A stretch of 64,000 nucleotides of DNA, taken from assembly GCA_001462345.1 (NCBI GenBank), contig LIUM01000040.1, forward strand, positions 1-64,000, read 5' to 3'. Shown one piece after another: positions 25,955-31,607 of this stretch. This DNA comes from Fibrobacteria bacterium AD312. Lineage in GTDB: Bacteria; Fibrobacterota; Fibrobacteria; Fibrobacterales; Fibrobacteraceae. The first letter of the stretch is position 1. Each line of letters begins with the position of its first letter. The translations under genes were made by a program, and so were the position numbers. Below the pieces are notes generated by a model. It was not told the DNA's origin. It saw nothing but the letters and a program-made list of their open reading frames with translations, and searched no databases.

Positions 25955-26535
25955 AAATATTCAATAATTTTAGAATTTGTCCAAACATAGTCAAAAATCA
26001 TTCAAAGCAACCATCAAAATAGGCTTAAATTTGGGGTTTTAGCCAGTTCTTAAAAACGAATTATTAATGATTGCCTAAAATGAAAAAGCATGTTTCATTA
26101 AAAATCAAATATAGAAAAAATATTCTACTGCACAAATGTATAAAAAGAAAGGAGACTCTGTTAGTCTATTTTGTACAAATAGTGTTTTCTAGCATAAAAA
26201 TCTAGTGATGTAAGCCCTTTTTTTTCTTTTTATTCACTAAAAATGGGCAGAATAATGGCTGCGAAGGTCTGAACTAAGGGGCGCAATAAAAAAACAGCCT
26301 TAGCAGTAAATTTGTAGAATTTGGCTCGGAAATCGCGGTTTTGAAAAATTATTATCGAAGCGTACGAAATAACTTGACAGAGCCAAGTAAATCCGCGCAA
26401 GCCTTGTCGCAAAGGGAGCTGTTGCAAACATTTATAAAAAGTGTTGCAAATGTTTTACAATATTTGCATAAAAAAATGTCGATTTGTAGATAAAAGATTT
26501 ATTTAACTAGAGGTGTTTTGGCGATTGAGGTGAAT
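25955..26535. other. Intergenic region between parE and the GH30 gene
   Basis: 580 bases without a convincing gene. The first half (to about 26220) is very AT-rich and must hold the parE promoter. From about 26240 to 26430 the base composition rises (segments such as GGCTGCGAAGG and CCGCGCAAGCC); a 65-codon minus-strand frame crosses it but has no recognised product. The last 100 bases are AT-rich again and end with GAGG five bases before the GH30 start codon. Confidence 0.5.
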
Positions 26536-28494
26536 ATGCAATTTTCTAACGTTAGTATTATAACGAGTGTTTTGGTGGTGGGGCTTTTGATTGCGGCGCC
26601 TGCGATGGCGCAAACTACCGTCGTTGTGGACCCCACGAAAAAATACCAGACCTTCGAGGGTTTTGGTTCCAGTCTTTGCTGGTGGGCGGTCAAGGTGGGC
26701 GCCTGGAACGAGACGAACCGTAACAAGCTTTTGGGGGCCATTGCCGACCCCGACACGGGTCTCGGTTACACGTACTTCCGTTACAACATTGGCGGTGGAG
26801 ATCAGCCAGGCCATAATCACTTGACCAAGGGCGATGGCGGTGCTGCGGTGCCGGGCTACAAACCAAGCGAAAACGGGAGTTACGACTGGAATGCTGACGC
26901 GAGCCAGCGAGTAGTTGCCACAACGCTAGCCAAGATGGCGAAGGACCCGATTTTCGAGGCGTTCAGCAATTCGCCACCGTGGTGGATGACCAACAGCGGT
27001 TGCGTCTCGGGTGGCGTGAACGGCGCAGACAACCTAAAGACTGACTACTACGACGACTTTGCCGACTATCTTTCGGAGGTGGCGCTCCACTTTAAAAAGG
27101 AATGGGGAATTACGTTCCGCACGGTGGAGCCCTTCAACGAACCCAGCGCCGGCTGGTGGAAGGCCAACGGCGACCAGGAAGGTTGCGGCTTTAAGAACAA
27201 CCAGTCCAAGATGATCGTGGAACTTGGCAAGAAGCTCAAGGAAAAGGGGCTGTTCCCCGAAACGTCTGTGGGAGCGGCCGACGAATCTAACATCAGTGAT
27301 GCCCTCAATCAGTTCAAGGGCTACAGCGAAGAGGCTCTCTCGTACATATTCCAGGTGAACACCCACAGCTATTCGGGTTACGATTCCCGCGCGGGGCTGT
27401 TCAACGCGGCCTTCGCGAAAAACAAGAAGGTGGTGCAGTCCGAAACGGGGCCTCTCCACAAGAGCGGCGATGAAAATATCGCACTATGGATGGCGGGCCT
27501 CATTATTGCTGATATCCGCGACATGAAAGCTAGTGCTTGGGTGGACTGGCAGCTGGGCGACCCGGCGGAAAACTGGCGCTCCTTTGCGCTGGACCACTCG
27601 AAGCAGACTTACAAGCCTAACGCTCGCTACTACATGCACGCCGCGTTCAGCCGCGTGCTGCGCCCGGGCTCGCGCATTATCGACAGCGACAACGGCAACA
27701 CGCTTGCGGCCTTGCGCGGAGATGGTGCGCTAGTGCTTATCGTGCGCAACAGTGGTACGGCCGATGCAAGTTACAACTTTGACCTGAGCGGTTTCGATAA
27801 GCTGGGAACTGCGGCGAAGGTGAATGTGTTTGCGCTCCCTGGGAGCTTAACCGCAGTAAGCGATCTGAGCGTTACGGGCAAGTCACTTGCCATAACCGCG
27901 AAGGCAAATACCGTGACAACATTCGTGATTCCAAGTGTCGAGGCAAACGGCCAGTGTACACCAAGCGACATTATCCCCTATGTAAAAATCGGGAACGGTG
28001 GCTGGAATGAACAGACCGAGGTGAACATCGAAAAGGGCGACTCCCTGAGAATCGGCCCGCACCCGTGGGAAGTCGGTCGCTGGATTTGGAGTGGTCCGAA
28101 GGACTTTTCGACCACGAACCGCGAGTTCATATTGAGGAACATGGACGGTACCATGAGCGGGCATTATAAGGCGCAGTACACCAATGCGGTAGGATGCGAA
28201 AGCTCTGTGGACTTCAAGGTTATTGTGAACGATGCGGAATACCCCTACGTGGAACCCGCAGACACTCCTCTAACGAACTTGACAACCGAGAAGCAACGCA
28301 TGACGCTAGACTTACTGCAGCAACAGCGTTATATGACCCTCTATGATATGCAAGGCGTTATCGTGTACCATGCGCGTGTGAACGGCGGGCACATTACCGT
28401 TCCGAACCAAGGCATTACTCGTGGGCGGTACATCTTGCAAGTGCGCAACAACCGCGGGCAAGTCGTAATGCAGAAAACTATTGCAAAAAGATAA
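26536..28494 (+). CDS. Secreted GH30 glycoside hydrolase (endo-beta-1,6-galactanase-like) with Ig-like and sorting domains
   Basis: 652 residues from ATG 26536; GAGG lies 5 bases upstream, so the earlier TTG at 26518 is rejected. Signal peptide to about residue 25 (APAMAQ). The GH30 barrel begins YQTFEGFGSSLCWWA; acid/base Glu202 in VEPFNEPSAGWW and nucleophile Glu303 in VVQSETGP. The SLCWWA and FSNSPPWWM motifs point to the beta-1,6-galactanase subgroup rather than glucuronoxylanase; this specificity is inference. Residues about 475-575 form an Ig-like domain (RIGPHPWEVGRWIWSGP) and the last 65 a type IX-like tail (YDMQGVIVYHA, GRYILQVRNN). The gene is far richer in G+C than every neighbour (the line 27121-27180 has 40 G+C of 60), suggesting acquisition from another genome. 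Confidence 0.9.
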   Translation: MQFSNVSIITSVLVVGLLIAAPAMAQTTVVVDPTKKYQTFEGFGSSLCWWAVKVGAWNETNRNKLLGAIADPDTGLGYTYFRYNIGGGDQPGHNHLTKGDGGAAVPGYKPSENGSYDWNADASQRVVATTLAKMAKDPIFEAFSNSPPWWMTNSGCVSGGVNGADNLKTDYYDDFADYLSEVALHFKKEWGITFRTVEPFNEPSAGWWKANGDQEGCGFKNNQSKMIVELGKKLKEKGLFPETSVGAADESNISDALNQFKGYSEEALSYIFQVNTHSYSGYDSRAGLFNAAFAKNKKVVQSETGPLHKSGDENIALWMAGLIIADIRDMKASAWVDWQLGDPAENWRSFALDHSKQTYKPNARYYMHAAFSRVLRPGSRIIDSDNGNTLAALRGDGALVLIVRNSGTADASYNFDLSGFDKLGTAAKVNVFALPGSLTAVSDLSVTGKSLAITAKANTVTTFVIPSVEANGQCTPSDIIPYVKIGNGGWNEQTEVNIEKGDSLRIGPHPWEVGRWIWSGPKDFSTTNREFILRNMDGTMSGHYKAQYTNAVGCESSVDFKVIVNDAEYPYVEPADTPLTNLTTEKQRMTLDLLQQQRYMTLYDMQGVIVYHARVNGGHITVPNQGITRGRYILQVRNNRGQVVMQKTIAKR

Positions 28495-28827: not shown

Positions 28828-29184
28828 TTAAACTTTGTACACAGCTTTCTTGTCTGCGACTGCTAAAGAAGCAGTGTGGCGACGACGTCTGAACTTGATC
28901 TTTGGTTCAAGGTGAATTTGAATTCCCAAAGCAGAAAGGACTTTCATTACCGTTTCAAAACGAGGGTGGGCATTTTCGTTTAATGCTTTATATAGACTTT
29001 CTCGGCCAAGTCCAGTTTTTTCTGCGATGGATGCCATTCCCTTGTTGCGTGCTACGTGACTAATAGCGCGGAGCAAAAGGGCTGGATCTTCCGATTGGCA
29101 GGCCAAATCGAGATATTCGGCAACGATTTCTTCGTTGTCCAAATATTCTGCAATATCAAGAGGGATTATTTTACTTTTTTTCAT
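28828..29184 (-). CDS. Antitoxin of a HigA-like toxin-antitoxin pair
   Basis: 118 residues. N-terminal DIAEYLDNEEIVAEYLDLACQSEDPALLLRAIS and the helix-turn-helix MASIAEKTGLGRESLYKAL match the HigA-like 'addiction module antidote' family (TIGR02684 type), which neutralises the toxin and represses the operon. The C-terminal tail (KFRRRRHTASLAVADKKAVYKV) is basic and longer than usual. It overlaps the toxin gene by 14 bases, toxin first, the usual order for this group. The frame is intact. Confidence 0.88.
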   Translation of the reverse strand: MKKSKIIPLDIAEYLDNEEIVAEYLDLACQSEDPALLLRAISHVARNKGMASIAEKTGLGRESLYKALNENAHPRFETVMKVLSALGIQIHLEPKIKFRRRRHTASLAVADKKAVYKV

Positions 29185-29473
29185 TTTTATATACCTGCCA
29201 AATATTTGCTGCCTTTTTTATATCTCTATCTTGACTAGACTTATCACCGCCGATTAAAAGAACGATTATCACATCACCTTCTCGTGCAAAATACAATCGA
29301 TAACCTGGTCCATAGTCAATTCTCAGTTCAAACACTTCCTTTCCAACAGATTTGAAATCCCCCAAATTGCCGTTTTCAACTTGGGTTAAACGAAACGCTA
29401 CACGAGCTTTCGCTCGCACATCTCGTAATTTGATCATCTATTTTTGAAATTCGGATGTTTGCCTAATCATCAT
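29171..29473 (-). pseudogene. HigB/RelE-like toxin interrupted by an in-frame amber codon
   Basis: The open part (29171-29437, 88 codons) starts MIKLRDVRAKARVAF and carries the family core GNLGDFKSVGKEVFELRIDYGPGYRLYF (TIGR02683 type). The codon directly upstream is TAG (29440-29438), and before it the same frame reads MMIRQTSEFQK from ATG 29473. In the family this first part is typically xxIRxTxxFxxW, so the TAG sits where a conserved tryptophan (TGG) is expected. A single G-to-A change would thus have split the gene. Either the toxin is dead, or restart at ATG 29437 yields a form lacking the first strand. RelE-like toxins of this family cut mRNA on the ribosome. Confidence 0.85.
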
Positions 29474-29510
29474 ACACTATAAGTGTATCTAAATGGATAC
29501 ATCTTGTCAA
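29474..29510 (-). promoter_or_regulatory. Promoter and operator of the toxin-antitoxin operon
   Basis: On the minus strand: TTGACA (29510-29505), 17-base spacer, TACACT (29487-29482). Two palindromes overlap it: GTATC/GATAC arms at 29485-29500 in the spacer and ACACT-ATA-AGTGT at 29474-29486 over the -10 box. This is the layout expected for repression by the antitoxin. Confidence 0.6.
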
Positions 29511-29702: not shown

Positions 29703-31607
29703 TTATTTTTCTTTTGTTATCCCTAGATCAGCATCGGTCATGCCATAGAAGCGAATATCGTCAAGGTAGATTTCAAGTGTATCATCTACCGATTCGCCAT
29801 AGCTTTGGCCATTGGCAAATTGAAGATTCTTGACAGCTGTATTGTGTTCTGCCCATGTGGCGCCTTCTGTTTCTAAGGCAGAATATGGAGTAGGTACAAA
29901 TTGATCAAACCAAAGTTTGTATTCTTTCCAATCTTCAGTTAATTCTATTGGTGTTTGGAACTTGCCCCAGTTTTTCCCGCCACAACATGTATCGGTATAA
30001 TCCATTCCAAATGAAACCATGAATTCACCTTTTCCTTTTGCTTTGAAAGTCAAAGCGACTAGTTTGGAAAAATCATAATTTCCGTCATGGATCGATGCAC
30101 CAAAACCAAAAAATGGATAGTTCTCTCCTTTCAAATTGAATTTACCATACAACCCGCGACCTTCATAGCCATTTTCTATAATCATCTGATCAAAATTAGT
30201 TTTAGTGGTCGCTGTATCTAATTCTAATAAATTGATTAGCAAATTCGTAAAAATGGTATCGCCAGAATAAGAAAAGACGCGAGATATAGAATCGTGGTAA
30301 GTGTACCAATAGCCTTTACCCGAATCTAGAGTGCCTTTTTCTTGGAGTGCTAATTTTCCAGAAACTGGATTCATATTGATGTAGTTGTCAGAGTAGGAGT
30401 CAAAGTCATCAAAAAGCACGTAGCTTAAAGTATCTAGTTTGGGGTAACTAGAGTATTGACTGAAATCAATTGAAGGGCGAAGTAGTGCATCCATCAAGTA
30501 GCTATACCATGTGTCAGAGGCATCGTCATAAACGCCAAAGCCCGAAGAATATTCCCAATAGGCAGTCGCAAAGCCGAGTTTAGTAGCGGTTGTACCTACA
30601 AATTCAGTCCACAAGGTTCTAGTCGTAGAATCTGCCGCAGAAAACACGCCAAATTCACCAAGATAAACAGGGATTTTATTTGCATCAGACCAAGCTTTCA
30701 CTTTATCGAATAACTTTGTAATTGTAAGTTGATCTGCACCAGTCGCTTTCCATGAAATATTCGGCGGATAATCGTATTCGCCATCTCCATCAAAATCGGA
30801 TCCTTGATGTGTGACAGACATGGGCTCATAATAATGAAATTCGGCAATAATATTACCAGTACCAGCGGGGATTTTAAGTGATTGTAGCCCTGCAGCAGAG
30901 TTCCAATTATCGCCACCAACCATGATCACTCGTTCTGGGCTAATGCCGCGAATCAGTTCAATGGTTTCTGCCACAAGATTATACCAACCTGTTCCAGCAA
31001 GCTTGCTTCTAGGCTCATTTAAGAGAGCTATAATTAAAGAATCTTCGCTGTATCCTTTAAAATTCGTTGTCAGTTGCTTATAAACGTCTAAGAAGCATGG
31101 CTTTGTACCAGTTGGATTGCTATACATTCCTGCCCAATGGTGTGAGTTTACAACGGCAATCATTCCATTTTTAATGACTTCATCAACGGCATATGTAATG
31201 CGAGCCATCCAAGATGGATCTACAGTACAACCAGTTTCAGAACTATCTGTTAAATGAGTATCCCAGCGAACAGGAATACGAATGTTGGTGAATCCAGAAT
31301 CGGCAAGGGCTTTTACGCCTTCAGCACTAAAGGTTTCGCCCCAAGTGCCTTCATCAGGGGCTTCAAAGACGTTCCCTAGATTGATACCAACGCCCATTTT
31401 CTTGACAAGTGCCGCTGCAATTTCCTTCACTTCTACTTGTGAAGAGGAGGAAACTTCTTCAGAGGACAATGGAACTTCTTCTGAAGATGAAATTTCAGAA
31501 ACAGACGAAGAACTTAGAGTTTCTTCGTCTGTTGTCTTAGAAGGACTATCCGAACAAGCGGAAAAGTAAAGAGAGGAGGCTAAAGCGATGCCTATAATTT
31601 TTTTCAT
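29703..31607 (-). CDS. GH5 endoglucanase lipoprotein with serine linker and CBM11-like domain
   Basis: 634 residues. Lipoprotein signal with Cys18 (LYFSAC), then a linker rich in Ser and Glu (about 31-56). The GH5 barrel spans about 60-375: GINLGNVFEAP, NIRIPVRW, VNSHHW, acid/base Glu198 in ALLNEP, nucleophile Glu318 in YLGEFGVF, and WEYSSGFGVYD. Residues about 395-625 form a sandwich of CBM11 type (FDDFDSYSDNY, LTFKAKGKGEFMVSFGMDY, DDTLEIYLDDIRFYG). It is expected on the outer membrane and cuts beta-1,4-glucan chains. The Ser-rich linker after the lipid anchor is typical of Fibrobacter. A decayed copy of its 3' end lies 1 kb downstream. Confidence 0.93.
   Translation of the reverse strand: MKKIIGIALASSLYFSACSDSPSKTTDEETLSSSSVSEISSSEEVPLSSEEVSSSSQVEVKEIAAALVKKMGVGINLGNVFEAPDEGTWGETFSAEGVKALADSGFTNIRIPVRWDTHLTDSSETGCTVDPSWMARITYAVDEVIKNGMIAVVNSHHWAGMYSNPTGTKPCFLDVYKQLTTNFKGYSEDSLIIALLNEPRSKLAGTGWYNLVAETIELIRGISPERVIMVGGDNWNSAAGLQSLKIPAGTGNIIAEFHYYEPMSVTHQGSDFDGDGEYDYPPNISWKATGADQLTITKLFDKVKAWSDANKIPVYLGEFGVFSAADSTTRTLWTEFVGTTATKLGFATAYWEYSSGFGVYDDASDTWYSYLMDALLRPSIDFSQYSSYPKLDTLSYVLFDDFDSYSDNYINMNPVSGKLALQEKGTLDSGKGYWYTYHDSISRVFSYSGDTIFTNLLINLLELDTATTKTNFDQMIIENGYEGRGLYGKFNLKGENYPFFGFGASIHDGNYDFSKLVALTFKAKGKGEFMVSFGMDYTDTCCGGKNWGKFQTPIELTEDWKEYKLWFDQFVPTPYSALETEGATWAEHNTAVKNLQFANGQSYGESVDDTLEIYLDDIRFYGMTDADLGITKEK

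What the first reader, a model, noticed from the sequence alone, without database searches (positions are those of the whole stretch)
29171..29473. Toxin gene split by TAG at its conserved tryptophan codon
Reading through TAG 29440-29438 restores the family N-terminus MMIRQTSEFQK-[W]-MIKLRDVRAKAR exactly in frame. The antitoxin and operator remain intact, so the pair may be a neutralised addiction module, or the toxin may be made by readthrough or by restart at the next codon, which is ATG.
Basis: partly seen in the sequence, partly recalled or inferred. Interest (0 to 1): 0.6.

Follow-up and report, generated by a model that had tools for sequence, protein, structure and literature searches.

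The report
Broken toxin beside an intact antitoxin
A small bacterial toxin gene in a Fibrobacter relative is cut short by a stop codon where all 109 relatives compared have tryptophan, while its antidote gene and control site are intact: an ordinary case of a toxin-antitoxin pair losing its toxin, as many related bacteria have also done.

Summary
On the minus strand at 29440-29438 an in-frame TAG interrupts a RelE/ParE-type toxin of family TIGR02683 (upstrm_HI1419); the partner at 28828-29184 is an intact TIGR02684/PF21716 antitoxin. All 109 relatives compared carry tryptophan at that codon and none carries a stop. Reading across the TAG raises the family score from 112 to 127 bits. The methionine that follows is an inherited residue, present in most close relatives, not a start codon of the family.

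Suppression is unlikely: RF1 is encoded, none of 44 tRNAs reads UAG, and TAG ends 8 of 37 long window ORFs. The restart ORF (88 aa) lacks strand 1 and helix 1 of the fold and has no Shine-Dalgarno.

I read it as a recently defused toxin-antitoxin module with antitoxin, promoter and operator kept. This recurs in the family: by my count, of 59 antitoxin loci in 111 genomes, 35 keep a full toxin, 5 have a damaged one, 16 have none, and 3 antitoxins are partial. Most toxin-less loci keep the operator, and their antitoxins look constrained. Toxin decay and orphan antitoxins are known, so interest is modest. An assembly base error cannot be excluded without reads.

The parts
29171..29473 (-). remnant of the TIGR02683 / PF05973 RelE/ParE-type toxin gene, interrupted by an in-frame TAG
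   Evidence: translation; TIGR02683 127.3 bits when read across the stop, cut-off 62.85; only copy in the genome
29438..29440 (-). in-frame TAG at toxin codon 12, at the family's conserved tryptophan
   Evidence: 109 of 109 relatives have Trp there
29441..29473 (-). first 11 codons: strand 1 and start of helix 1 of the fold
   Evidence: TIGR02683 match extends to profile position 2; secondary structure of an intact relative E2-5, H7-15
29171..29437 (-). 88-aa ORF after the stop, starting at the ATG next to the TAG; keeps the conserved ELRIDYGPGYR and GGDKSSQ segments; would probably pass as a complete toxin in automatic annotation
   Evidence: lacks strand 1 and helix 1
28828..29184 (-). intact antitoxin, TIGR02684 / PF21716 dnstrm_HI1420 (HTH); its start overlaps the toxin's end by 14 nt
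   Evidence: PF21716 119.6 bits, TIGR02684 110.4 bits; 64-75% identical to antitoxins beside intact toxins of the same subgroup
29485..29500 (-). operator GTATCCATTTAGATAC (inverted GTATC/GATAC) between -35 and -10
   Evidence: same spot and form in most Fibrobacteraceae loci
29482..29510 (-). promoter TTGACA-17-TACACT; ends 8 nt before the toxin ATG, so the mRNA probably has little or no leader
   Evidence: 10 of 12 consensus bases; geometry shared with relatives

Best explanation
This was a reverse-order (toxin first) type II toxin-antitoxin operon of the TIGR02683/TIGR02684 kind in a member of the Fibrobacteraceae. A nonsense mutation at the conserved tryptophan of codon 12 stopped production of the full toxin, which by family is probably a ribosome-dependent mRNA endonuclease (inferred). 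The promoter, the operator and the antitoxin remain, so the cell very likely still makes an autoregulating antitoxin but no active toxin. The lesion is recent compared with the age of the gene, since the other 88 codons still read as a conserved family member with signs of loosening. The retained antitoxin could persist neutrally, or because it still neutralises related incoming toxins or represses its own operator. Shown: the stop, the family, intact antitoxin, operator, no suppressor found, parallel losses in relatives. Inferred: loss of toxicity, antitoxin expression, and the reason the antitoxin stays.
For: Trp in 109/109 relatives. Upstream codons add 15 bits. No CUA anticodon among 44 tRNAs, RF1 present, TAG ends 8 of 37 window ORFs of 200 aa or more. 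Single copy, no paralogue. Toxin own-branch length 0.313 against 0.167 for the antitoxin, normalised ratio 1.64; 7 departures from otherwise invariant columns (one being the stop) against at most 2 in any intact close relative, including Glu at position 46 where 93 of 99 relatives have Gly. Antitoxin and operator intact. Parallel losses: 5 damaged and 16 missing toxins among 59 antitoxin loci, needing at least 15 changes on the antitoxin tree, 7 forced by starred branches. Decay of chromosomal modules by nonsense mutation or deletion is documented (PMC7167474, PMC2654758).
Against: The 88 codons after the stop contain no further lesion, and across the whole branch change is still mainly synonymous (pN about 0.2, pS about 0.75), which fits a recent lesion but also a still-used frame. 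The rate excess is borderline (by my rough estimate about 25 versus 15 expected changes). A single draft base could be wrong.
Confidence: 0.78

Rival explanations
1. Assembly or sequencing error: the real genome has tryptophan there and the module is intact.
For: One base separates the stop from the family codon; it is the only lesion; the frame is otherwise clean; no reads or second genome of the species were available (two congeners lack the locus).
Against: Contig C40 is 168 kb in a 50-contig, 99% complete assembly; toxin-specific loosening, including the change at a near-invariant glycine, suggests a real loss of constraint.
Confidence: 0.12
2. Restart: ribosomes finishing the 11-codon ORF at UAG resume at the adjacent AUG and make an 88-aa protein that keeps some toxin or co-repressor function, and keeps ribosomes moving towards the overlapping antitoxin start.
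For: TAG and ATG are adjacent; the 88-aa ORF is open, scores 112 bits against TIGR02683, and is modelled at mean pLDDT 89; toxin and antitoxin ORFs overlap by 14 nt.
Against: No Shine-Dalgarno before the ATG; no relative starts there; the methionine is an ordinary inherited residue; the product lacks strand 1 and helix 1; toxin-less relatives keep their antitoxin without such a frame.
Confidence: 0.08
3. Amber readthrough makes small amounts of full-length toxin.
For: Reading through restores the family exactly.
Against: No CUA anticodon in 44 tRNAs (tRNAs in unassembled rRNA operons would be missed), RF1 present, TAG in ordinary use, no relative with a stop at that codon.
Confidence: 0.02

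Closest known systems
TIGR02683/TIGR02684 (HI1419/HI1420-type, HigBA-like) type II toxin-antitoxin modules
   Same: Both families above their cut-offs; toxin first; overlapping genes; operator inside the promoter
   Different: The toxin here is interrupted at codon 12
Decaying chromosomal toxin-antitoxin loci, e.g. ccdO157 of E. coli (cited in PMC7167474 and PMC2654758)
   Same: Nonsense mutation or deletion of a chromosomal module
   Different: Another family and phylum; here only the toxin is hit
Orphan antitoxins, e.g. in Klebsiella pneumoniae (PMC7192599)
   Same: Antitoxin kept without a working toxin; anti-addiction and remnant explanations proposed there
   Different: Here the toxin remnant is still present and almost complete
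HigB1 of M. tuberculosis and HigB2 (PDB 7nbu, 7awk, 8a0x)
   Same: Closest solved folds to the intact relative's model (Foldseek E about 7e-4, TM up to 0.71)
   Different: Only 15-23% identity; no solved chain found by sequence

Membership tests
TIGR02683 RelE/ParE toxin (upstrm_HI1419) | Family score above cut-off | tested here: met
   112.4 bits for the 88-aa ORF, 127.3 read across the stop; cut-off 62.85
TIGR02683 RelE/ParE toxin (upstrm_HI1419) | Intact reading frame including the N-terminal strand and conserved tryptophan | tested here: not met
   TAG at codon 12; Trp in 109/109 relatives. So it is a broken member, not a working one
TIGR02683 RelE/ParE toxin (upstrm_HI1419) | RelE-like fold | tested here: inconclusive
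   An intact relative models at pLDDT 93 and matches HigB/RelE structures; the window's own 88-aa form lacks strand 1 and helix 1
TIGR02683 RelE/ParE toxin (upstrm_HI1419) | Growth inhibition or RNA cleavage | not testable with these tools
   needs expression
TIGR02684 antitoxin (dnstrm_HI1420) | Family score, intact frame, directly downstream of the toxin | tested here: met
   110.4 bits, cut-off 53.7; 118 aa open; 14-nt overlap
Type II toxin-antitoxin operon | Shared promoter with an operator the antitoxin can bind | tested here: met
   TTGACA-17-TACACT with GTATC/GATAC repeat, conserved in relatives; sequence only, binding itself not tested
Suppressed or recoded amber gene | UAG-reading tRNA or absent RF1 | tested here: not met
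   no CUA anticodon in 44 tRNAs, RF1 present

The most novel reading that the evidence does not exclude
In Fibrobacteraceae, the antitoxin with its operator is a unit selected in its own right (against related toxins on mobile elements, or as a regulator), so that toxins are repeatedly discarded while promoter, operator and antitoxin stay; the window locus has been caught soon after the toxin died.
Probability: 0.3. Interest if true: 0.45.

Novelty: new member of a known kind. Interest (0 to 1): 0.22.

Why it matters
Alone it is a routine pseudogene, but automatic annotation would probably list the 88-aa remainder as a working toxin. With its relatives it gives a series of states (intact, amber, frameshifted, partly deleted, cleanly removed) in which the antitoxin and its operator survive the toxin, a useful set for testing why orphan antitoxins persist.

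Tried and rejected
Suppressor tRNA: 44 tRNAs found and read, none with CUA. Code change: RF1 present, TAG in ordinary use. The methionine as the family's true start: rejected by 109 relatives. A second copy elsewhere in the genome: none. Same allele in the genus: both congeners, which are 74-77% complete, lack the locus. Solved homologue by sequence: none. Mobile relatives: plasmid and viral homologues exist, but those listed are about 49-62% identical, so a specific anti-addiction partner was not found. Synteny through the neighbouring GH30-like gene was not informative: the gene is widespread in the family but not found in the congeners, and no empty site was worked out. Two alignment calls failed on coordinates.

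Full report
Observation. On the minus strand, 29473-29171 reads MMIRQTSEFQK*MIKLRDVRAKARV...KNEKK*, with TAG at 29440-29438 followed directly by ATG. The 88-aa ORF after the stop matches TIGR02683 (112.4 bits, profile 15-93) and PF05973. Read across the stop, the match becomes 127.3 bits over profile 2-93. The eleven codons before the stop are therefore part of the gene. The downstream ORF 28828-29184 matches TIGR02684 and PF21716 well above cut-off and overlaps the toxin frame by 14 nt.

Is the codon normally tryptophan? I collected 29 toxin loci from the same family of genomes and 80 from public genomes; the closest named records are Fibrobacter or Fibrobacterales. All 109 have tryptophan at the aligned codon and none a stop; the two sets overlap in part. 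The next residue is M in 23 of 110 sequences including most close relatives, so the adjacent ATG is an inherited residue. Starts lie about 11-13 codons before the tryptophan in nearly all.

Could the stop be read? RF00005 found 44 tRNA genes; ARAGORN assigned anticodons to them and none is CUA. tRNAs in unassembled rRNA operons would be missed. RF1 (prfA) is present. In the window, 8 of 37 ORFs of 200 aa or more end in TAG. Readthrough is unlikely.

Could translation restart? The ATG adjoins the stop, but the preceding sequence CAAACATCCGAATTTCAAAAATAG has no Shine-Dalgarno. An intact relative is modelled (pLDDT 93) with strand 2-5, helix 7-15 and the rest of a RelE-like fold, closest to HigB1/HigB2 structures. 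The 88-aa form lacks the first strand and helix. A fold prediction does not measure stability or activity, so weak residual function cannot be excluded.

Control region. TTGACA-17-TACACT encloses GTATCCATTTAGATAC and ends 8 nt before the toxin ATG. Relatives have the same geometry, with GTATC/GATAC or GTAGCC/GGCTAC repeats. The toxin message probably has almost no leader; this is inferred from spacing, not measured.

Constraint. Aligned with close relatives, the window toxin departs from otherwise invariant columns 7 times (one being the stop itself), intact relatives 0-2 times. One change puts Glu at position 46, where 93 of 99 relatives have Gly. On a fixed tree its branch is 0.313 in the toxin and 0.167 in the antitoxin, 1.64 times the tree-wide proportion. 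By my rough count this is borderline. Pairwise pN about 0.2 against pS about 0.75 shows that most of the branch was lived under constraint. The lesion is therefore probably recent.

Wider pattern. In 111 genomes of the family I count 59 antitoxin places and 40 toxin places. Every toxin has an antitoxin beside it. Thirty-five toxins are full length; five are damaged: the window (amber), G089 (remnant of the C-terminal part), G081 and G003 (one-base frameshifts, possibly draft errors), and G098 (in-frame loss of 8 residues in the conserved YGPGYR segment). Sixteen antitoxins have no toxin, and three are partial. Where the toxin is present the operator lies 295-307 nt before the antitoxin start. 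In toxin-less loci it lies 19, 25, 29, 29, 33 or 34 nt before it, or directly at the antitoxin start in five further loci; five toxin-less loci lack a matched operator. In L172 the junction falls at an ATTTGG that is present at both ends in intact relatives, as in a simple deletion between short repeats. On an antitoxin tree, intact versus lost needs at least 15 changes, 7 forced by starred branches; tree support is modest. Toxin-less antitoxin pairs with unsaturated dS show dN/dS of about 0.04-0.19, so they seem maintained, provided the toxin was lost before each pair split.

Interpretation. The simplest account is a toxin-antitoxin operon whose toxin was recently broken. The antitoxin and its control site remain, as in other members of the family. 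Decay of chromosomal modules by nonsense mutation and deletion is established (PMC7167474, PMC2654758), and orphan antitoxins are common in Klebsiella (PMC7192599). What is shown here is sequence; loss of toxicity, antitoxin expression and the reason for retention are inferred. A wrong base in the draft is the main rival and needs reads.

Novelty. A broken member of a known kind. The recurrent loss with operator retention in Fibrobacteraceae is the more useful part, and I found no paper on it in the library by title or abstract, which is a limited search.

Noticed in passing
L172, L187, L196, L197, L204, L205: Antitoxins without a toxin that keep promoter and operator 19-34 nt upstream (295-307 nt where the toxin is present), as if the toxin had been cut out cleanly.
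   Followed up: partly
L174, L176, L177, L191, L192 (and fragment L201): A group of toxin-less antitoxins whose start follows the promoter/operator directly, with a different N-terminus (MCMHKRLDIAEYL in most); dN/dS 0.04-0.17 among the five complete ones.
   Followed up: partly
L203 (G098): Toxin with an in-frame loss of 8 residues in the conserved YGPGYR segment beside an intact antitoxin: a different way of disarming the same family.
   Followed up: partly
L189 (G081), L202 (G003), L190 (G089): Toxin frameshifts and a C-terminal remnant beside intact antitoxins; draft errors not excluded.
   Followed up: partly
window 29482-29473: The -10 element ends 8 nt before a doubled ATG, so the toxin message may be leaderless; many Fibrobacter relatives share the spacing, others have GGAGG there.
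   Followed up: partly
window 29399-29420: Stable hairpin TGTGCGAGCGAAAGCTCGTGTA inside the toxin frame soon after the stop (fold z-score -2.0); terminator-like by pattern, unexplained.
   Followed up: no
window 26518-28494 and 29703-31607: The module sits between a GH30-like glycosidase gene and a cellulase-like gene; the first is widespread in the family but not found in the two incomplete congeners. Enzyme names are from reading the sequence, not from a family scan.
   Followed up: partly
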